A stretch of DNA of 53,229 nucleotides from positions 1 to 53,229 of IMG/VR virus record IMGVR_UViG_3300009502_000065, one strand, 5' to 3'. The number at the start of each line of letters is the position of its first letter. Position 1 is the first letter of the stretch. Below are positions 20,608 to 43,449 of the stretch, one piece after another. The DNA comes from a virus. A program made the position numbers and the translations under genes. Below the pieces are notes generated by a model, which was given only the letters and a program-made list of their open reading frames with translations, had not been told where the DNA came from and ran no database searches.

Positions 20608-21537
20608 ATGTTAAGGAAAAAATGGACAGAAGAAGAAGTCGAAAAGTTAAAAAATTCATATCTAAATATGAGTACAAAAGAATTGTCTTTATTTTTAGAT
20701 AGGACTGAGATTTCTATTATTGGCAAAATGCAGTTATTGGGTATAAATAGAATGTGGACTAAAAATGAAGATGATATATTAAGAGAGAATTATGGAATAA
20801 ACAATTATGAGGATTATAAATATTTATTACCAAATAGAACATTAAGTTCTCTATTTAATAGAGCACAAGTTTTAAAAATAAAATGTAAAGAAAAAATTAG
20901 AAATAATTATAAATATGATGTAAATCATCATTTTTTTAAGGATTTGTCCAATATAAATTGCTATTGGGCTGGATTTATTGCTGCTGATGGTTGGATAAAA
21001 TCTGATTGTAATTGCTTAGGTGTAAAATTGGCAAAAAAAGATATAAAACATTTAGAGAAATTTAAATTCGATATTCAATCTAATTCACCTATAAGAGAAA
21101 AAAAAGCAAAAATTGATGAAAAGATTTTTTTACAAAGTGAAATAAATGTTTACTCCAGATATATTGTGCACGATTTATATGATAATTTTAATATAACTCC
21201 TAATAAAACTTTTACTTTAATACCACCAAATATTGAAAACTTTGAACATAAAATTTCATATATAGTTGGTCTAATTGATGGTGATGGCACGATAGGAAAA
21301 AAAACTAATGCAACTGATTTGAGAATTTCTTTAGCTGGCAATGAAGAAATTATAAAATGGTGTAAGTCTGTGTTAGTGGATCTTCTTAAATTAAGAAAAT
21401 CAAAAAAAATTGCGTATAGTAATAAAATTTATAGCTTTAGTTTAGGTAATAAAAACTCTATAAAATTTATCAATTATGCAAAAAAATTAAATATACCTCA
21501 TATGGAGAGGAAATGGAATAGATATGGATTACAATAA
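20608..21537 (+). CDS. LAGLIDADG freestanding homing endonuclease
   Basis: A 309-residue protein with two LAGLIDADG-type helices, YWAGFIAADGW (119-129) and YIVGLIDGDGT (218-228). Each carries the catalytic acid (Asp127 and Asp226), so a single chain forms the pseudo-dimeric nuclease. The N-terminal 95 residues hold two Myb/SANT-like helical units (KKWTEEEVEKLKNSYLNMSTKEL; MWTKNEDDILRENYG) that probably help DNA binding. The gene carries its own promoter, and its 3' end overlaps the dnaJ start by 14 bases. It therefore looks inserted just upstream of dnaJ. Confidence 0.9.
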   Translation: MLRKKWTEEEVEKLKNSYLNMSTKELSLFLDRTEISIIGKMQLLGINRMWTKNEDDILRENYGINNYEDYKYLLPNRTLSSLFNRAQVLKIKCKEKIRNNYKYDVNHHFFKDLSNINCYWAGFIAADGWIKSDCNCLGVKLAKKDIKHLEKFKFDIQSNSPIREKKAKIDEKIFLQSEINVYSRYIVHDLYDNFNITPNKTFTLIPPNIENFEHKISYIVGLIDGDGTIGKKTNATDLRISLAGNEEIIKWCKSVLVDLLKLRKSKKIAYSNKIYSFSLGNKNSIKFINYAKKLNIPHMERKWNRYGLQ

Positions 21538-29912: not shown

Positions 29913-31103
29913 TTGAAGATAATTAAATATACATATAAATTTAGGTTAGAACCAACACAAGAACAGGAAATTCTATTAAATAAGCATTTTGGCTCTGTTA
30001 GATACGTATATAATTATTTTTTGAATCAAAGAAAAGAAGAATACTTAAATAATAAAAAATCAATAACTTATAATCAACAATCAAGTTTTCTAACTCAATT
30101 AAAGAAAGATGAAGAGACAAATTGGCTCAGTGAAATAAATAGTCAGACGTTACAGTATTCTCTTAAATGTTTAGACCAAGCATATCAAAATTTTTTTAAC
30201 AAAAGAACTCAATTCCCAAAATTTAAATCAAAGAAAAATAAAAATTCATTTACTTCTCCACAATACGTTAGAGTTAAAAATAATAAATTATTAATTAGAA
30301 AATTTAATGAAGGAATTGAAATGATAATGGAAAGAAAAATTAAAGGAACAATTAAACATTGTGTTGTAAGCAAAACTACTACTGGAAAATATTTTGTTTC
30401 AATTTTAACAGAACAAGAATATAAACCAATTCAAAAAACAAATAAATCAGTAGGCATAGATTTAGGAATAAAAGACTTTTTAGTGTTATCTGATGGAACG
30501 AAAATCAAGAATCACAGATTTCTGAAACATTACGAAGGAATATTAACATTAAATCAAAAGCATCTATCAAGGAAAACAAAAGGATCAAATCGTTATGAAA
30601 AACAAAGATTAAAAGTTGCTAGAATTCATGAAAAAATAACTAATTCTAGAATGGATTTAATTCACAAAACAACTAATAAACTAATTCGTGATTTTGATAT
30701 AATTTATTTGGAAGACTTAAATATTAAAGGAATGATGAAAAATCATAAACTATCAAAAGCAATTAGTGATGTTAGTTGGGGTATATTTATTAATATAATA
30801 GAATACAAAGCAGTATGGAACGATAAACAAGTTATTCATATTGATAGATTTTTTCCTTCATCCAAAGCCTGTTCTAAATGTGGTTGGATTAACAATAATT
30901 TAACTTTAAAAGATAGAACTTGGGCTTGTAAGTGTGGTTCTGTTCATGATAGAGATATAAATGCTGCAATAAATATTCTTAACGAAGGATATCGTAAAAA
31001 TATATCAGATGGAACGTCTGATTATGAGCGTGGAGCAAAAATAAGACCAGTTTCGACTGGCGCAAGCAACGAAACGCTTAAAAAGAAGGAACTTGTTTCC
31101 TGA
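29913..31103 (+). CDS. tnpB: TnpB RNA-guided endonuclease, intact active site
   Basis: A 396-residue protein starting at TTG (MKIIKYTYKFRLEPTQEQ). The RuvC acids are all present: GIDLGIKDF (Asp183), IIYLEDLNIKGM (Glu267) and HDRDINAAINIL (Asp348). The zinc ribbon is present as SKACSKCG (Cys320, Cys323) and ACKCG (Cys339, Cys341), the second pair spaced CxC rather than the usual CxxC. TnpB cuts DNA guided by an omega-RNA made from the element's right end. The 3' 100 bases of this gene and its flank have suitable structure. It is clearly a different lineage from the TnpB-like protein at 1872. Confidence 0.92.
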   Translation: MKIIKYTYKFRLEPTQEQEILLNKHFGSVRYVYNYFLNQRKEEYLNNKKSITYNQQSSFLTQLKKDEETNWLSEINSQTLQYSLKCLDQAYQNFFNKRTQFPKFKSKKNKNSFTSPQYVRVKNNKLLIRKFNEGIEMIMERKIKGTIKHCVVSKTTTGKYFVSILTEQEYKPIQKTNKSVGIDLGIKDFLVLSDGTKIKNHRFLKHYEGILTLNQKHLSRKTKGSNRYEKQRLKVARIHEKITNSRMDLIHKTTNKLIRDFDIIYLEDLNIKGMMKNHKLSKAISDVSWGIFINIIEYKAVWNDKQVIHIDRFFPSSKACSKCGWINNNLTLKDRTWACKCGSVHDRDINAAINILNEGYRKNISDGTSDYERGAKIRPVSTGASNETLKKKELVS

Positions 31104-33951: not shown

Positions 33952-34003
33952 ATTACTTATATATTAATTTAAACAATCAAAAAATTATTTGATATATATA
34001 ATA

Positions 34004-35122
34004 ATGGATAAGAAGAGTATAATAGATTTATCAAATAAGATTCATAATTTTTATTATGATTATGCCAAAGTTGAGGATTCTGGTAAAATGAATAAAATAA
34101 AAATTATATGTCCTATTCATGGTGAATTTGAACAGAGATTGGATGTTCACCTTAAAGGATCTGGATGCATAAAATGTGGAATAAATAGTAGAAAAAATAA
34201 TATATTTGAGTTAATAAGTAAATTTAATGTAGTACACAACAATAAATATGATTATTCTTTGACTTACTATGTTAATAATAAAAGTAAAATAAAAATTATA
34301 TGTCCTATTCATGGTGAATTTGAGCAATCTACATCAAAACATTTATTCGGCTCTGGTTGCAAAAAATGCTCAGTGGATAATTCTAAAAAAAATAGAACTA
34401 AATCGAAAGATCAATTTATAAAAGAATCAAACAAAAGGCATAATAATAAATATGATTATAGTCTGGTTAATTATGAAAACAATTATAAAAAAATTAAAAT
34501 TATTTGTCCTGATCATGGTGTTTTTGAACAAATTCCAAATAATCATTTATCTGGATCAGGTTGTTTTAAATGTTTTCATATTTATATTAATAATTTTAAT
34601 ACTTTAGATATATTAGAAATTTTTGATAATTTTAATAATGTACATGGTGATAAATATGATTATTCTTTGGTAGATTATGTGAATGGTGATATAAAAATTA
34701 AAATTATCTGCGAGGTTCATGGTATATTCGAGCAGACCCCAAATAGTCATAAAAATGGTTCTGGCTGTCCTCATTGTGCTAATATAAAAAATAGGTTAAA
34801 ATATATTGATATTTTGAAAAGTAGATTTGAATCCAATATACAAATAACTCCAAATTTTAATAAATCTGCTTGTGCCATATTTGATAATATTATGAAAGAT
34901 AATAATTCATATATTCAACACGCTATGAATGATGGTGAATTTTTTATTAAGGAATTAGGATATTGGTTGGATGGTTATGATAAAGTTAATAATATTGTAT
35001 ATGAATTTGACGAAAAATATCACTTTAAAAAAGGAGTATTATCACCAAAAGATATAATACGACAGATGGAAATAGAAAATTTATTAAAATGCAATTTTAT
35101 CAGAATAAAAAATAATAATTAA
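34004..35122 (+). CDS. DUF723-type zinc-ribbon putative homing endonuclease
   Basis: A 372-residue protein. Four repeats of about 55 residues carry KYDYSLxxYVN, KIKIICPIHGEFEQ and GSGCxKC, the DUF723 zinc-ribbon pattern. The C-terminal 90 residues contain ELGYWLDGYDKVNNIVYEFDEKYHF, consistent with a Vsr-like nuclease with acids and His. The start is placed at 34004 after TTTGATATATATAATA; an upstream TTG at 33989 falls within that box. It is related in design to the 24384 protein. It precedes the glycosyltransferase gene by 3 bases and could be a recent insertion there. Confidence 0.72.
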   Translation: MDKKSIIDLSNKIHNFYYDYAKVEDSGKMNKIKIICPIHGEFEQRLDVHLKGSGCIKCGINSRKNNIFELISKFNVVHNNKYDYSLTYYVNNKSKIKIICPIHGEFEQSTSKHLFGSGCKKCSVDNSKKNRTKSKDQFIKESNKRHNNKYDYSLVNYENNYKKIKIICPDHGVFEQIPNNHLSGSGCFKCFHIYINNFNTLDILEIFDNFNNVHGDKYDYSLVDYVNGDIKIKIICEVHGIFEQTPNSHKNGSGCPHCANIKNRLKYIDILKSRFESNIQITPNFNKSACAIFDNIMKDNNSYIQHAMNDGEFFIKELGYWLDGYDKVNNIVYEFDEKYHFKKGVLSPKDIIRQMEIENLLKCNFIRIKNNN

Positions 35123-35125
35123 AAA

Positions 35126-35764
35126 ATGAAAAATCCGTTTGATTATTTTGAGGAAATTTGGGTTATTAATCTGGATTCCAGAACAGATCGTTGGCAACAC
35201 GCACAAGAGGAATTTAAGAAAGCTGGAATTTTAGATAAAGTTCAAAGATTTTCTGCAATTAGGGAAGACGATGGTAGAGTTGGTGTTATAAAATCAAACC
35301 TGGCTATTGTAAAAATGGCAAAACAAAAAAAATTAAAAAATGTCTTAGTTTTTGAAGATGATTTTGAATTTATTGTTGATGATCCTCAAAAGGTACTACA
35401 GACATCTATTGATCAAGCAAAAGGAATAAATTGGCACCTATTTTATTTAGGCGCAAATACACATGAAAAACTAATTAAATTTAAGCCAAATTTAATAGCA
35501 TTAAGAAACGCATTTGCAGTTCATTCTATGGCATATAGTAGCCTTGTATATGATTCTTTTATAAATAAGTATGAAGGAATTAAATCTATAAGAACTTTTG
35601 ATGATATACTTGATGTTTATTTAGCCAAAAATATTCAAACAAAAGGTGTTTGTCTTATGGTTAATCCTATGATGACTACACAAATGAATTCTTTTTCTGA
35701 TATTGAAAAAAGAATAGTAGATTACTCTTTCATTGAAGAAAGATATAAAAACAATATAAAATAA
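35126..35764 (+). CDS. GT25-like glycosyltransferase
   Basis: A 212-residue protein with the glycosyltransferase family 25 layout. WVINLDSRTDRW (12-23) is at the N-terminus, followed by GRVGVIKSNLAIVKMAK and the metal/nucleotide-sugar site VLVFEDDFEF (74-83, EDD 77-79). This family often adds sugars to lipopolysaccharide or proteins. With the HldE-type kinase at 43723 it hints at phage-directed surface or virion glycosylation (inference). It overlaps the next start by one base (TAATG), linking it to the fractured ATPase. Confidence 0.8.
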   Translation: MKNPFDYFEEIWVINLDSRTDRWQHAQEEFKKAGILDKVQRFSAIREDDGRVGVIKSNLAIVKMAKQKKLKNVLVFEDDFEFIVDDPQKVLQTSIDQAKGINWHLFYLGANTHEKLIKFKPNLIALRNAFAVHSMAYSSLVYDSFINKYEGIKSIRTFDDILDVYLAKNIQTKGVCLMVNPMMTTQMNSFSDIEKRIVDYSFIEERYKNNIK

Positions 35765-36498
35765 TGACTGACAAAACACTAAAAACACCATTTGTAATTT
35801 CTGATCAAACATTAGATAGAAGAGAAGATATATATGCTTTTTCTGAGTTTGGTAAAATTGTAAATAGATACGTATTAAATGATCAAATATTCTCCGTCGA
35901 TTTTTGGAAATATTTGAAAGACAATTATGTTATAAAGCCTGAAAACACTATAGTATATTGTGATCTTCGCTCAGATGTTAAAAATAGAATGGAAAAAAGC
36001 TACAAATATATTGTTAAAGTTGATAAGCCATTTAAAATGATATTTCAATTTTATGATGAAGAAAAAGTTGTAGATGATAAAATATACGAAACTGAAATTG
36101 AACAAAAAAATAAAATTTCAGAGTTAATGATTCATTTTGACTTTGATGCAATTGATCATGTTGAAAAATTTGTTGAAGATGTTAAGAAAATTATGTATCA
36201 ACCTGCAGTTAATAAAACATTTTTCATTATTTCTTCATCTTCAATGGGTTATGAATTAAGAGCAGCAAATATTAAAGAATTTGACGTACAATTAGATTTG
36301 AATTATGGTGAGTCATTTGTTGAAAAATATGCTGATATAGTTAATAAATTGAGAAATTTCAAACATGGATTATTTTTATTTCATGGAGAAACTGGTTGTG
36401 GGAAATGTGTGGACGAATCTACTATTGTTACGTTACGAAATAAAACTACTGGCGAAATAGAAAATATAAATATTTCAGATTTTGAAAAAATAATATGA
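35764..36498 (+). CDS. AAA+ ATPase N-terminal part fused to N-intein fragment
   Basis: A 244-residue protein. Residues 1-214 are the N-extein, ending exactly in the Walker A segment FHGETGCGK. Residue 215 is Cys, starting CVDESTIVTLRNKTTGEIEN, a typical intein block A with catalytic Cys1. The frame stops 30 residues into the intein at ISDFEKII. The rest of the ATPase (TTLIRKL...) is in the gene at 37518 after a C-intein. The product should therefore be useful only after protein trans-splicing. The ATPase resembles BCS1/FtsH-type AAA proteins; its phage role is unknown. Confidence 0.85.
   Translation: MTDKTLKTPFVISDQTLDRREDIYAFSEFGKIVNRYVLNDQIFSVDFWKYLKDNYVIKPENTIVYCDLRSDVKNRMEKSYKYIVKVDKPFKMIFQFYDEEKVVDDKIYETEIEQKNKISELMIHFDFDAIDHVEKFVEDVKKIMYQPAVNKTFFIISSSSMGYELRAANIKEFDVQLDLNYGESFVEKYADIVNKLRNFKHGLFLFHGETGCGKCVDESTIVTLRNKTTGEIENINISDFEKII
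36406..36495 (+). other. N-intein fragment (about 30 residues)
   Basis: Begins at Cys (TGT, 36406-36408) directly after the Walker A Lys codon and covers only block A before the stop. An N-intein this short is of the atypical split kind known from AceL-TerL and similar phage metagenome inteins; canonical split points leave about 80-100 residues. Confidence 0.82.
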
Positions 36499-36555
36499 TG
36501 TTTTGCCTGTTCCACTCATAATATTTTTATATATAGAACAAAAGAATAATTAATT

Positions 36556-37536
36556 ATGAGTTTTTATGATATTGAACATTGGATAAAAAAAGGTTTGAGT
36601 GAAAATGATGCTAAGGAAAAAATAAAAGAAATAAAAGAGAAAAATAATAGATTTCGTGTTGAATTTTGGTTAAGGAAAGGATTTACTGAGATTGAATCTA
36701 AAGAAAAAATAAGTGAGATACAAAAAAATAATGCGTCAAAGGTTAATCATAAAACAAAGCCTCAAACAACTAGAATAGATTATTGGATAAGTAAAGGTTA
36801 TTCTCTTGAAGAATCTAAAATAAAATTAAAAGAGAGACAAACTACATTTACATTAGATAAATGTATATTTAAATATGGAGAAATAGAAGGACAAAAAATA
36901 TTTAGAAATAGGCAAGAAAAATGGCAAGAGACTTTAAATAAAAATAATGATAAAATTGAACTTAATAAAAAACGTGGTCTATCCAAAGAAAAGTTTATTG
37001 AAAAGCATGGTCTAGAGATGTTTAATAAGAGTGTTGAATTAAAAAAATTTGGAAGTAGTAAAGAAGGTTTGATAGAAAATTATGGTTTAGATTTTTATAA
37101 TAAGAGAATAAATAAAACAAAAATTGTATTAAAAAACAGAGGATTTAATAAATATTCAAAAATATCATTAGAATTGTTTTTAGAAATAGAAAAAAATATA
37201 GATTTAGATTGTTTTTACGGTAAAAATGAAAAAATAATACAATTTTATGCTGATGAAAAATATTTTTGCTTCTATGCTGACTTTATGTGTGAAAATAAAA
37301 TTATAGAATTTTATGGTGATTATTTTCATGGTAATCCAGAGGTGTATAATAAAGATAAAATAATTGGTAGTAAATATAAACATTTTTCTGCTGAAGATGC
37401 TTGGAAAAAAGATTCTGATAGAATAAACTTAATTAAAAATCAAGGATATGATATATTAATAATATGGGAAAATGATTATAAAAAAGATAAAGAAAAAATA
37501 AAAAATAAATGTGTAGAATGGATAAAAAATTTATAA
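36556..37536 (+). CDS. Freestanding Vsr-like homing endonuclease inside the split-intein locus
   Basis: A 326-residue protein. Three N-terminal repeats of about 35 residues (IEHWIKKGLSENDAKEKIKE; EFWLRKGFTEIESKEKISE; DYWISKGYSLEESKIKLKE) and two later GLSKEKFIEKHG/GSSKEGLIENYG units look like DNA-binding modules. The C-terminal nuclease region has FYADFMCENKIIEFYGDYFHGN, then DRINLIKNQGYDILIIWENDY, the Vsr-like pattern of endonucleases reported with fractured, split-intein genes. It has its own TTTTTATATATAG box and overlaps the C-intein gene by 19 bases. Confidence 0.82.
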   Translation: MSFYDIEHWIKKGLSENDAKEKIKEIKEKNNRFRVEFWLRKGFTEIESKEKISEIQKNNASKVNHKTKPQTTRIDYWISKGYSLEESKIKLKERQTTFTLDKCIFKYGEIEGQKIFRNRQEKWQETLNKNNDKIELNKKRGLSKEKFIEKHGLEMFNKSVELKKFGSSKEGLIENYGLDFYNKRINKTKIVLKNRGFNKYSKISLELFLEIEKNIDLDCFYGKNEKIIQFYADEKYFCFYADFMCENKIIEFYGDYFHGNPEVYNKDKIIGSKYKHFSAEDAWKKDSDRINLIKNQGYDILIIWENDYKKDKEKIKNKCVEWIKNL

Positions 37537-37862
37537 GTTCGAAAAATATTTCAAATTATGAAATATTAACAGAAGATGGATTTAAAGATGTTATAGCATT
37601 ACATAAAACTATACCTTATGATATGTATAATTTAGTTCTTGAAAGTAAAGAGTTAAAATGTGCAGATTTTCATATTGTTTTTTTAGAAACTGGTGAAGAA
37701 ATTTTTGTTAAAGATTTGATTAAAGGTAATAAAATAAAAACTGTTGATGGTGTAGAGGAAGTTTTGGATGTTATAAATTGTGGTTATGAAAAAGAAATGT
37801 ATGATTTTGAACTTGGTGGTGATAATTTTAAATATTACACCAATGGAATTTTAAGCCATAAT
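37518..37862 (+). other. C-intein fragment (about 115 residues)
   Basis: Ends at His-Asn (CAT AAT, 37857-37862) before ACC ACA (Thr-Thr). Contains the block B His in ADFH and blocks F and G. Together with 36406-36495 it is a complete mini-intein of about 145 residues. Confidence 0.82.
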
Positions 37863-38369
37863 ACCACATTAATTAGAAAATTGGTTTCTGAATTAGCTGA
37901 AGATAAAACTATTATTTATGTTCCATCATATTTTATGGCTGATATTGCTAATCCAGAATTAATTTCATTTATTTCTAAATTTAGAAATTCTGTTCTCTTA
38001 TTAGAAGATGCTGAGAGTATTTTAACTGCACCACAAGATGAAAGAACACAAGCTGTCACAAATATATTAAATATTAGTGACGGATTATTGAATGATCATA
38101 TGGATATGCAAATAATTGCAACATTTAATACTGGCAAAAAGAATGTAATTGATGATGCTTTATTACGAAAAGGTAGATTGATGGTTGATTATAAATTTAA
38201 GAAACTTACTGCAAAACAAGCAACTAAACTATCTAAACATATTGGTCAGAATAAAGAATATACTGAGCCTAAATCTCTAGCTGAAATTTATGAGGAAAAA
38301 AATAGTGGTAAACAATTGGTAGATAATGATGTAAATACACAAAAAATAGGATTTCAATTTACAAAATAA
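37518..38369 (+). CDS. C-intein fragment fused to AAA+ ATPase C-terminal part
   Basis: A 283-residue protein from ATG 37518 (37509 is an alternative). Residues 1-115 are the C-intein: NYEILTEDGFKDVIALHK, a block B-like KCADFHIVF and block F/G MYDFELGG...YYTNGILSHN. The terminal Asn is followed by Thr as the +1 nucleophile. The C-extein TTLIRKLVSELAEDK completes the Walker A motif. It carries Walker B VLLLEDAESIL, sensor IIATFNTGKKN and DDALLRKGR. Splicing would yield a 382-residue AAA+ protein from residues 1-214 plus 168. No promoter is seen, so translation probably relies on the overlapping endonuclease gene. Confidence 0.85.
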   Translation: MDKKFISSKNISNYEILTEDGFKDVIALHKTIPYDMYNLVLESKELKCADFHIVFLETGEEIFVKDLIKGNKIKTVDGVEEVLDVINCGYEKEMYDFELGGDNFKYYTNGILSHNTTLIRKLVSELAEDKTIIYVPSYFMADIANPELISFISKFRNSVLLLEDAESILTAPQDERTQAVTNILNISDGLLNDHMDMQIIATFNTGKKNVIDDALLRKGRLMVDYKFKKLTAKQATKLSKHIGQNKEYTEPKSLAEIYEEKNSGKQLVDNDVNTQKIGFQFTK

Positions 38370-40405: not shown

Positions 40406-40567
40406 ATGCCAAAAATAAAAAAGACAAAGAAGAAAGTTGCCATTACTGTTGATCCTGATATTTATGAATTTTTAACAAATTTTGAAAATAAATCAAAGTA
40501 TGTTGAGTATTTAATATATAAAGATATTAAGGAATGTGGGTTATTAAAAAAAGAAATTATACTATGA
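40406..40567 (+). CDS. Ribbon-helix-helix protein coupled to GIY-YIG endonuclease
   Basis: A 53-residue protein: basic arm MPKIKKTKKK, beta strand VAITVD, then PDIYEFLTNFENKSKYVEYLIYKDIKECG, consistent with an RHH fold. It overlaps the GIY-YIG gene by 4 bases (ATGA) and shares its promoter. It may repress that promoter and so limit endonuclease expression (inference). Confidence 0.65.
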   Translation: MPKIKKTKKKVAITVDPDIYEFLTNFENKSKYVEYLIYKDIKECGLLKKEIIL

Positions 40568-41298
40568 TTCATTATGTTTATGCTTATTTAGATACAAGAA
40601 AGCCTGGTAAATATATTTATGATGATTTAGAATTTGAATATGAGCCATTCTATATTGGTCAAGGTAAAAAATATAGATGTTCAACTGGATTAAAAAATGG
40701 CTCTAAATACAAAGTTCATAAAGTTAATAAAATAATTAAGGATGGATTTTATCCTAAGATAATGAAATTGTATGAAAATCTAAATTTTGAAAATGCTATC
40801 AAGTTAGAGATTGAAATTATTTCAAAGATTGGTAGATGTGATTTACAAAATGGTCCTTTAGTAAATTTAACAAATGGCGGAGAAGGAAAGTTAAATTTTA
40901 AAATTACAGAAGAAACAAGATTAAAACAGAGATTGGCTAAACTCGGAAAATCACCATCCAATAAAGGTGTATCACCATCAAATGAAACTAAAGAAAAAAT
41001 ATCAAATTCGTTAAAAGGTGATAAGAATTTTAATTATGGTAAGCATTTTAGTGACGATCATAAAAAAAGACTTTCAGAATCAAATAAAACTCCACAAATT
41101 AAACCAGTCTATCAATATAATTTAGAAGATTATTTTATAAGAGAATATGATTCAATATTGTTAGCGTCAATAGATAATAAGATAAATAAATCCAGTATAG
41201 GTAAATGTTGTAGAGGTGTGGTTAATAAAGCTGGTGATTATAAATGGAAATTTAAAAATCCAAATGGTAATCATAGAAAAAATAATAATGAATTATGA
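40564..41298 (+). CDS. GIY-YIG freestanding homing endonuclease
   Basis: A 244-residue protein. N-terminal GIY-YIG variant (VYAYLDTRKPGKY...FYIGQGKKYRCS, with Glu in LEIEIISKIG). NUMOD3-type motifs follow (GKSPSNKGVSPSNETKEKIS; GKHFSDDHKKRLSES). The C-terminal NUMOD1-like segment is KPVYQYNLEDYFIREYDS...IGKCCRGVVNKAGDYKWKF. The ATG at 40564 is chosen, after the RHH stop overlap. Its end overlaps the GGCT gene by 4 bases. Confidence 0.87.
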   Translation: MIHYVYAYLDTRKPGKYIYDDLEFEYEPFYIGQGKKYRCSTGLKNGSKYKVHKVNKIIKDGFYPKIMKLYENLNFENAIKLEIEIISKIGRCDLQNGPLVNLTNGGEGKLNFKITEETRLKQRLAKLGKSPSNKGVSPSNETKEKISNSLKGDKNFNYGKHFSDDHKKRLSESNKTPQIKPVYQYNLEDYFIREYDSILLASIDNKINKSSIGKCCRGVVNKAGDYKWKFKNPNGNHRKNNNEL

Positions 41299-42535: not shown

Positions 42536-42585
42536 AAAATGACTTTTTGTTTTTAATATATAGTATAAAAACAAAAAGTCATTTT
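42536..42585 (+). promoter_or_regulatory. GACTTT-N10-TATATAGTATA promoter in a 20-bp inverted repeat
   Basis: GACTTT at 42541, ten bases, TATATA at 42557, then GTATA. Perfect 20-base arms (42536-42555 and 42566-42585) flank the box, and the right arm ends at the ATG (42586) of a LAGLIDADG gene. The transcript would begin within the right arm. Confidence 0.6.
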
Positions 42586-43449
42586 ATGAAACATTACACA
42601 GAAGAAGAAATAGAATTTTTAAAAATAAATTATCCAAAATTTGGTGGTTCTTATTGTTCTTTAGAACTTAATAAAACAAAAAATTCTATTTTAGCAAAAA
42701 CAAAAAGACTTAATATATATCTAAATGATGATATTAAAAGTGAAATTAAAAGAAATAATTCTTTAGGTTGGTATAATAAAATAGATAATGATTCATATAA
42801 TGTCGGATATGAACAATTTAAAAATATAAATACTCCAGAAATTGCGTATATTTTAGGTTTAATTTGGACTGATGGTGATTGTCATAAAAATAAATATCAC
42901 AATGATATTAGAGTTGAGATTATAAAAAAAGATTTAGACGAAATTAGATACATTTTTGATAAAGTTGGAAAGTGGGGATATTATAATAGAAAAAGGAAAA
43001 ATAAAAAAGAAAGCGCAATTTTAAAAACCTCTAACAGGCCATTATTAGATTATTTATATTCGGTTGATTTTAATAAAAAATCGTTTGCCAGTCCTGATAA
43101 AATTTTAGATAGAATACCATCAAAATTAAAAATGTATTTTTTTAGAGGAATTATAGATGGCGATGGCTGTTTTTATAATGGCAAAGGTCTTAAATTGTTT
43201 TCTGTAACAAGTTCAATAGAACAAGATTGGAAATATTTGGAAGATTTATTTAATTCATTAAATATTGAATATAAAATAAGAAAAAAAGAACATAAAAATA
43301 AAACTGGAAATATTTCACATTCTTCATTAATTGAAGTTATTGGTATTAATCGTATAATAAAAATTGGAAATTATATTTATAATGGTTTTGATTTGGATAA
43401 AATAGGATTAAAAAGGAAATATGATAAATATTTGTCAATTAAAAATTAA
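42586..43449 (+). CDS. LAGLIDADG freestanding homing endonuclease
   Basis: A 287-residue protein with two LAGLIDADG-type helices, IAYILGLIWTDGDC and YFFRGIIDGDGCF, each with its catalytic Asp. A Myb/SANT-like N-terminus (MKHYTEEEIEFLKINYPKFGGSY) resembles that of the 20608 enzyme. The ATG at 42586 is chosen because the frame upstream to 42547 runs through the promoter. Note that MKHYTEEE is a helical DNA-binding start, not the MKHLKTF tag. Converges with the gene at 43446. Confidence 0.88.
   Translation: MKHYTEEEIEFLKINYPKFGGSYCSLELNKTKNSILAKTKRLNIYLNDDIKSEIKRNNSLGWYNKIDNDSYNVGYEQFKNINTPEIAYILGLIWTDGDCHKNKYHNDIRVEIIKKDLDEIRYIFDKVGKWGYYNRKRKNKKESAILKTSNRPLLDYLYSVDFNKKSFASPDKILDRIPSKLKMYFFRGIIDGDGCFYNGKGLKLFSVTSSIEQDWKYLEDLFNSLNIEYKIRKKEHKNKTGNISHSSLIEVIGINRIIKIGNYIYNGFDLDKIGLKRKYDKYLSIKN

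What the first reader, a model, noticed from the sequence alone, without database searches (positions are those of the whole stretch)
35764..38369. Fractured AAA+ ATPase: atypical split intein in the Walker A motif with a freestanding endonuclease gene between the halves
The N-part ends GETGCGK, followed at once by an intein Cys and only 30 intein residues, then a stop. A separate Vsr-like endonuclease gene with its own promoter box follows. Then a C-intein of about 115 residues ends SHN, followed by TTLIRKL, which restores GETGCGKTT. Split-intein fractured genes with freestanding endonucleases, and atypical split inteins with very short N-fragments, are known from phage metagenomes. This combination at a P-loop is a clear new candidate. 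Such a split makes the ATPase depend on trans-splicing and keeps the endonuclease movable on its own.
Basis: partly seen in the sequence, partly recalled or inferred. Interest (0 to 1): 0.85.

Follow-up and report, generated by a model that had tools for sequence, protein, structure and literature searches.

The report
Split-intein ATPase gene with homing endonuclease
A phage ATPase gene is cut in two inside its ATP-binding loop by a self-splicing protein element with an unusually short first half and a DNA-cutting enzyme gene between the halves; related elements sit in the same loop of several other phage ATPases, so the site itself seems to be the target.

Summary
N-part 35764-36498 ends GETGCGK plus 30 intein residues. 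A 326-aa endonuclease gene follows (36556-37536). The C-part (37518-38369) has 115 intein residues ending ILSHN, then TTLIRKL. The joined exteins give a 382-aa AAA+ ATPase. Two other viruses (65-88% identical) keep every piece with dN/dS well below 1. A third, distant ATPase (26-41%) has the same split at the same codon. Ten loci from at least six viruses carry the ATPase uninterrupted, joined exactly at GK|T. The N30 and C115 pieces together align end to end with contiguous TerL mini-inteins, and the split falls in their variable linker. The endonuclease model is closest to I-Bth0305I and Vsr. [quoted passage not shown] It is inferred, not shown. The parts are known kinds: fractured genes, and atypical split inteins. 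New here are the AAA+ host gene, and the finding that close relatives of this intein occupy the Walker A motif of DnaB, TerL and Clp ATPases, more distant ones that of SbcC-like and UvsX proteins. In two related phages the endonuclease is decayed while the intein stays.

The parts
35764..36405 (+). N-extein: first 214 residues of the AAA+ ATPase, ending in Walker A GETGCGK
   Evidence: joined extein hits PF00004; adjoins the C-extein exactly in uninterrupted homologues L005-L014
36406..36495 (+). N-intein, 30 aa, Cys1 (block A region)
   Evidence: conserved in L003, L004 and L088; BLOSUM62 score 89 to the start of the contiguous VP-1 TerL intein against a shuffled maximum of 39
36496..36555 (+). 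Stop codon and 57-nt spacer, conserved TGTTTTGCCTGTTCCA....TAATATTTTTATATATA in three viruses
36524..36535 (+). Promoter-like box TTTTTATATATA in front of the endonuclease (and C-part)
   Evidence: enriched upstream of genes in the window: 14/51 genes, 0/300 permuted motifs as high
36556..37536 (+). Freestanding homing endonuclease, 326 aa: three tandem WxxKG repeats (likely DNA binding) and a C-terminal Vsr-like domain (IIEFYGDYFHGNP)
   Evidence: repeats; AlphaFold model pLDDT 75; Foldseek 3r3p I-Bth0305I prob 0.98, Vsr 1cw0 0.91 and 1vsr 0.90, all E>0.1
37518..37862 (+). C-intein, 115 aa, with block B-like CADFH and terminal ILSHN
   Evidence: phmmer VidaL 6vgv and CatC 6dsl 3.7e-6, gp41-1 6qaz 3.9e-5; alignment with contiguous TerL inteins
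37863..38369 (+). C-extein, 168 aa from +1 Thr (TTLIRKL) to the stop: Walker B-like LLLEDAES and later AAA+ motifs

Best explanation
It is a fractured phage gene. A class-1-type intein (Cys1, terminal His-Asn, +1 Thr) sits between Lys and Thr of the Walker A motif of a phage AAA+ ATPase. It is split after only about 30 residues into an N-part and a C-part made as separate proteins. The two intein pieces associate and splice in trans, joining GETGCGK to TTLIRKL and giving a 382-residue ATPase; neither half alone has a complete P-loop. Between the halves lies a Vsr-like (EDxHD) homing endonuclease gene with its own promoter, which most likely cuts intein-free ATPase genes at the GK/T codons so that the whole stretch (N-intein, endonuclease, C-intein) is copied in during co-infection. 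Shown by sequence: the anatomy, the conservation, the exact intein-free site, the intein homology. Supported by model: the nuclease fold. Inferred: trans-splicing, cutting, homing.
For: Exact extein junction in ten loci from at least six uninterrupted viruses. Same architecture in window/L002, L003, L004 and in the distant L088. Purifying selection on NE, NI, HEN, CI and CE. N30+C115 aligns over its whole length with contiguous mini-inteins inserted at Walker A GK|T of TerL in Vibrio, Serratia and E. coli phages; in Salmonella phage Maynard this intein is annotated Cys110-Asn268. PDB matches VidaL, CatC, gp41-1. Endonuclease model resembles I-Bth0305I and Vsr. In the DnaB helicase of related phages the same intein family persists with the endonuclease intact (G003, G008, G011), frameshifted (G007) or reduced to a 40-aa remnant (G005), which fits a homing life cycle and selection on splicing. 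The ATPase tree needs at least two gains or losses of the insert.
Against: No splicing, cutting or homing was measured. Block B has Ala where Thr is usual (CADFH), as also in VidaL (CAFNH). The AlphaFold model of the isolated C-part was poor (pLDDT 39), so the Hint fold rests on sequence. Foldseek E-values for the endonuclease are weak (0.17-0.4) although the probabilities are high. Only three independent close copies plus one distant copy carry the ATPase version.
Confidence: 0.88

Rival explanations
1. The intein halves are a decayed remnant: splicing is lost, and the ATPase is either dead or works as two non-covalently paired halves.
For: Splicing not tested; block B departs from the usual Thr; endonucleases of the sister DnaB elements do decay.
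Against: All catalytic positions (C1, block B His, penultimate His, Asn, +1 Thr) are kept in window, L003, L004 and L088, and all pieces show dN/dS below 1, most of them about 0.1-0.3. The C-extein stays 85-88% identical between viruses. The P-loop Lys and Thr lie on different chains.
Confidence: 0.06
2. The endonuclease region is removed as an RNA intron, so a contiguous intein is translated.
For: Phage introns carrying Vsr-like endonucleases are known (PMC12350094).
Against: No Rfam family in the window at gathering threshold and no intron hit at E<1 over 36300-37900. Only 57 nt lie between the N-part stop and the endonuclease start, and the endonuclease overlaps the C-part by 19 nt, which leaves no room for a group I or II core outside the ORF.
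Confidence: 0.03
3. Readthrough or frameshifting joins the pieces into one polypeptide with the endonuclease inside the intein.
For: In the window the N-part and the endonuclease share a frame, and an A AAA AAT heptamer lies before the endonuclease stop, where a -1 shift would enter the C-part frame.
Against: The N-part stop differs (TGA/TAG/TGA), and the spacer of 60 vs 53 nt changes the relative frame between viruses. The C-part has its own conserved ATG, and in L088 the endonuclease and C-part do not overlap. The endonuclease has its own promoter-like box.
Confidence: 0.02
4. Assembly or sequencing artefact.
For: Metagenomic contigs.
Against: Independent contigs from different metagenomes with 65-88% identity have the same order and junctions; L088 is much more distant still.
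Confidence: 0.01

Closest known systems
Fractured genes with split inteins and Vsr-like (EDxHD) freestanding homing endonucleases (Dassa et al. 2009, not held in the library; described from memory, cited in PMC12350094 and PMC7891396)
   Same: Host gene broken in two by a split intein, a freestanding endonuclease of the Vsr-like family between the halves, intein-free alleles elsewhere.
   Different: Split falls after about 30 intein residues instead of the usual endonuclease position (about 100/40 aa); host gene is an AAA+ ATPase.
Natural atypical split inteins AceL-TerL (25/104), GOS-TerL (37/115), PolB16 OarG (15/168), VidaL
   Same: Very short N-intein, long C-intein holding block B; lengths 30/115 lie in their range (PMC11766414, PMC10189870); significant match to VidaL.
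   Different: Other host genes (TerL, PolB). Whether endonucleases lie between their halves was not found in the papers held.
Walker A (GK|T) mini-inteins of Ackermannviridae TerL (Salmonella phage Maynard, Vibrio phage Kuja, E. coli phage ZQ1)
   Same: Closest cultured intein relatives: 35-44% identity over the whole intein for Kuja and ZQ1, about 37% over the C-intein for Maynard; same GK|T junction shown for Kuja and ZQ1.
   Different: Contiguous, no endonuclease, in TerL.
UvsX of Pseudomonas jumbo phages (Ettore, PA5oct and relatives)
   Same: Ettore has an N-part with 17 intein residues, an endonuclease gene whose sequence shows the same WxxKG and IEFYGNFWH motifs, and a C-part, split within Walker A GESG|SGKS. 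PA5oct has the endonuclease and C-intein matches side by side. Host is cultured.
   Different: RecA-family gene, split three residues earlier in the P-loop. The MIJ3 paper reports a split PolB intein and has no mention of UvsX (PMC6892783).

Membership tests
Class 1 intein | Nucleophile at position 1, block B His, penultimate His, terminal Asn, nucleophile at +1 | tested here: met
   C1, CADFH, SHN, +1 Thr in window, L003, L004, L088; block B Thr replaced by Ala
Class 1 intein | Sequence homology to proven inteins over the whole length | tested here: met
   VidaL/CatC 3.7e-6; end-to-end alignment with contiguous TerL inteins
Class 1 intein | Protein splicing activity | not testable with these tools
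   needs co-expression or proteomics
Atypical natural split intein | N-intein of about 15-40 aa, block B in the C-fragment, two separate ORFs | tested here: met
   30/115 split; conserved in L003, L004, L088
Fractured gene (Dassa type) | Split gene with freestanding endonuclease ORF between the intein halves | tested here: met
Fractured gene (Dassa type) | Intact homologues without the insert | tested here: met
   L005-L014, exact junction
Fractured gene (Dassa type) | Split at the canonical endonuclease site of inteins | tested here: not met
   split lies between block A and block B; so it is filed as a variant of the fractured-gene kind, not as a standard member
Vsr-like / EDxHD homing endonuclease (I-Bth0305I) | Vsr-like catalytic fold with conserved E, D, H, D | tested here: met
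   Foldseek 3r3p prob 0.98, 1cw0 0.91, 1vsr 0.90, E>0.1; E251, H258, D286 invariant in 8 homologues, D255 is Asn in L003; low sequence scores to Vsr
Vsr-like / EDxHD homing endonuclease (I-Bth0305I) | Cuts the insert-free allele | not testable with these tools
   needs cleavage assay

The most novel reading that the evidence does not exclude
The window holds one case of an intein family specialised on the P-loop. The inteins keep to Walker A (GK|T/S, or a few residues upstream) but occupy different NTPases (AAA+, DnaB, TerL, Clp, more distantly SbcC-like and UvsX), often in the atypical split form and, in several of these genes, with a Vsr-like endonuclease. The family would have crossed between non-homologous genes through the short P-loop sequence they share.
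Probability: 0.5. Interest if true: 0.68.

Novelty: new variant of a known kind. Interest (0 to 1): 0.55.

Why it matters
Natural split inteins with a very short N-fragment are few and useful for attaching short synthetic peptides to proteins; this adds a conserved set (30/115, +1 Thr) plus sister sets in DnaB, TerL and Clp. One virus (G003) carries two of them, in the AAA+ and DnaB genes, and so may need to avoid mis-joining two proteins. The series contiguous intein, split without endonuclease, split with endonuclease, split with decayed endonuclease makes the origin of split inteins testable. A related UvsX case exists in culturable Pseudomonas jumbo phages.

Tried and rejected
RNA intron: no Rfam match at gathering threshold over the window and none relevant at E<1 locally. 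AlphaFold of the C-part failed (pLDDT 39) and was not used. Genome-contig scan for the C-intein gave no relative. The fused intein has no Pfam family above cut-off and no NCBIfam hit, so homology rests on PDB chains and on TerL inteins. Co-conversion around the insert was looked for: nucleotide identity window vs L004 is about 72% in the N-extein and about 79-85% in endonuclease, C-intein and C-extein, but window vs L003 shows no step, so it is suggestive only. The P-loop clade against the TerL Walker-B inteins is starred at 96/95 with 25 sequences but falls to 87/41 when four very divergent ones are added; L042 (SbcC-like) is not securely placed. Dassa 2009 is not held in the library.

Full report
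Observation. The window (53,229 bp, 26.8% G+C, a virus record) holds at 35764-36498 a 244-aa ORF ending GETGCGK-CVDESTIVTLRNKTTGEIENINISDFEKII-stop, at 36556-37536 a 326-aa ORF, and at 37518-38369 an ORF with 115 residues ending YYTNGILSHN, followed by TTLIRKL. Joining the exteins gives 382 residues with a AAA domain (PF00004, 3.5e-10). A profile of uninterrupted homologues matches AFG2, BCS1 and Cdc48 chains in the PDB.

Is it real. A scan of IMG/VR with the C-extein gave 13 loci. L002 is essentially the same virus (99.98% over 12.5 kb). L003 and L004 have the same five pieces at 65-88% protein identity. L005-L014, ten loci from at least six distinct viruses, have one uninterrupted ORF in which the N- and C-extein matches adjoin at exactly the base where the insert lies. 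Between window, L003 and L004, dN/dS is about 0.1-0.3 for most pieces (0.7 for the 30-codon N-intein in the L003-L004 pair); the stop codon type and spacer length vary, but the N-intein end, the spacer motif and the C-part ATG are kept. A scan with the aligned C-extein brought in L088, whose ATPase is 26% (N) and 41% (C) identical; it has GLPGTGK-CVRKNTNITVRNKITGEIENINISDLM-stop, a 302-aa endonuclease, and MDKKIVN..ILSHN-TYYIRYL.

What the intein is. The joined 145-aa intein matches VidaL and CatC (3.7e-6) and gp41-1 (3.9e-5) in the PDB. Its C-part has tblastn matches in 338 phage records; most of those listed are annotated as terminase large subunits. In Ackermannviridae TerL this is a contiguous mini-intein inserted at the same motif, QARQSGK-C...LSHN-TT. 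Aligned, the window's N30+C115 covers these inteins end to end, and the split falls in their variable linker between block A and block B. The N30 piece alone scores 89 against the VP-1 TerL intein, where 2000 shuffles reached at most 39. Delftia phage PhiW-14 TerL has the same intein split by two stops with no endonuclease between, so a graded series exists.

The endonuclease. It has three tandem WxxKG repeats and a C-terminal domain with IIEFYGDYFHGNP and a downstream D; E251, H258 and D286 are invariant across eight homologues. The AlphaFold model (pLDDT 75) has as best PDB neighbours I-Bth0305I (prob 0.98) and Vsr (0.91, 0.90), though E-values are above 0.1. TTTTTATATATA stands 21 nt upstream and is a general promoter-like element of this phage (14 of 51 genes; 0/300 permuted motifs as high), so endonuclease and C-part are probably transcribed from it while the N-part is read from upstream.

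Wider pattern. Searching the records of these viruses with the C-intein and endonuclease alignments found the same intein type in the DnaB-like helicase (C-part PF03796, 6.5e-18) in five viruses, at GETNVGK|S where the N-part was read. One is G003, the virus of L004, which therefore carries two such elements. The endonuclease is intact in G003, G008 and G011, frameshifted in G007, and reduced to a 40-aa remnant in G005, while both intein halves stay open in G003, G005, G008 and G011; for G007 only the C-part was read. DnaB is uninterrupted in G001 (the window's near-identical relative), G004 and G006, to judge from open frames of about 450 aa and an intact GETNVGKSMW. Further cases: TerL L137 at QSGK|T with an endonuclease ending in a similar motif; Clp L138 at GTGK|T without endonuclease; an SbcC-like gene L042 at GGK|S with endonuclease; Clp G010 at GEPG|CGKT without endonuclease; and UvsX of the cultured Pseudomonas phage Ettore at GESG|SGKS with a 17-aa N-intein and endonuclease. 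In a C-intein tree the Walker A inteins of AAA+, DnaB, TerL and Clp form one side of a starred branch (96/95) against eight TerL inteins placed where the C-extein begins at Walker B, so relatedness follows the motif rather than the gene. This weakens to 87/41 with four very divergent sequences added, the sampling was by similarity to the query, and shared junction residues could contribute. Insertion between the invariant Lys and Thr is the 'classic' P-loop intein site (PMC5050341).

Mechanism. Shown: anatomy, conservation, exact empty site, intein homology, patchy distribution. The ATPase tree needs at least two gains or losses, while the AAA+ inteins group together in 92% of bootstrap trees. 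Inferred: the two precursors associate and splice in trans, and the endonuclease cuts insert-free alleles to drive copying of the whole stretch. Because the Lys and Thr of Walker A are on different polypeptides, ATPase activity should depend on splicing. That the endonuclease moves on its own is not supported; the data show it being lost while the intein stays.

Known or new. Fractured genes with freestanding endonucleases are known (Dassa 2009, from memory; AceL NrdHF with GIY-YIG, PMC7891396), and atypical split inteins are known (AceL-TerL 25/104, GOS-TerL 37/115, PMC11766414; PolB16 OarG 15/168, PMC10189870). The window combines the two in an AAA+ ATPase, and relatives with the same combination turn up at other P-loops. 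I found no paper in the held library describing this combination or the P-loop grouping, but the library lacks most of the intein literature. Hence 'new variant of a known kind'.

Noticed in passing
window 29913-31103 (+): TnpB-type RNA-guided endonuclease gene (NCBIfam guided_TnpB 1.9e-103; phrog_506 transposase) in a phage genome.
   Followed up: no
window 33989-35122 (+): DUF723/DUF4379-repeat protein, candidate member of the newly described CapR-like EDxHD/Vsr-outgroup homing endonucleases (PMC12350094), two genes upstream of the endonuclease and next to the glycosyltransferase gene that precedes the fractured ATPase.
   Followed up: partly
window 40534-41298 (+): GIY-YIG/NUMOD3/NUMOD1 homing endonuclease gene.
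   Followed up: no
window 20608-21537 and 42547-43449 (+): Two genes of phrog_4645 endonuclease family: this phage is rich in mobile nucleases.
   Followed up: no
window, whole: Phage promoter-like element TTTTTATATATA within 45 nt upstream of 14 of 51 genes.
   Followed up: partly
L039 2028-3894 and L043 3184-3876: UvsX/RecA-like gene next to the split DnaB, itself showing split-intein sequence of the more usual kind.
   Followed up: no
L148 1227-4233 (Pseudomonas phage Ettore): UvsX annotated as three separate genes is a fractured gene: 81-aa N-part with 17-aa intein start, endonuclease, C-part resembling VidaL; the first two are annotated 'hypothetical protein'.
   Followed up: partly
L105 (Delftia phage PhiW-14) 3400-4363: TerL N-terminal part is not annotated; it carries an atypical split intein without endonuclease.
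   Followed up: partly
L119 (G010:C1:16812-17159): Clp-type ATPase split at GEPG|CGKT by an atypical split intein with no endonuclease between.
   Followed up: partly
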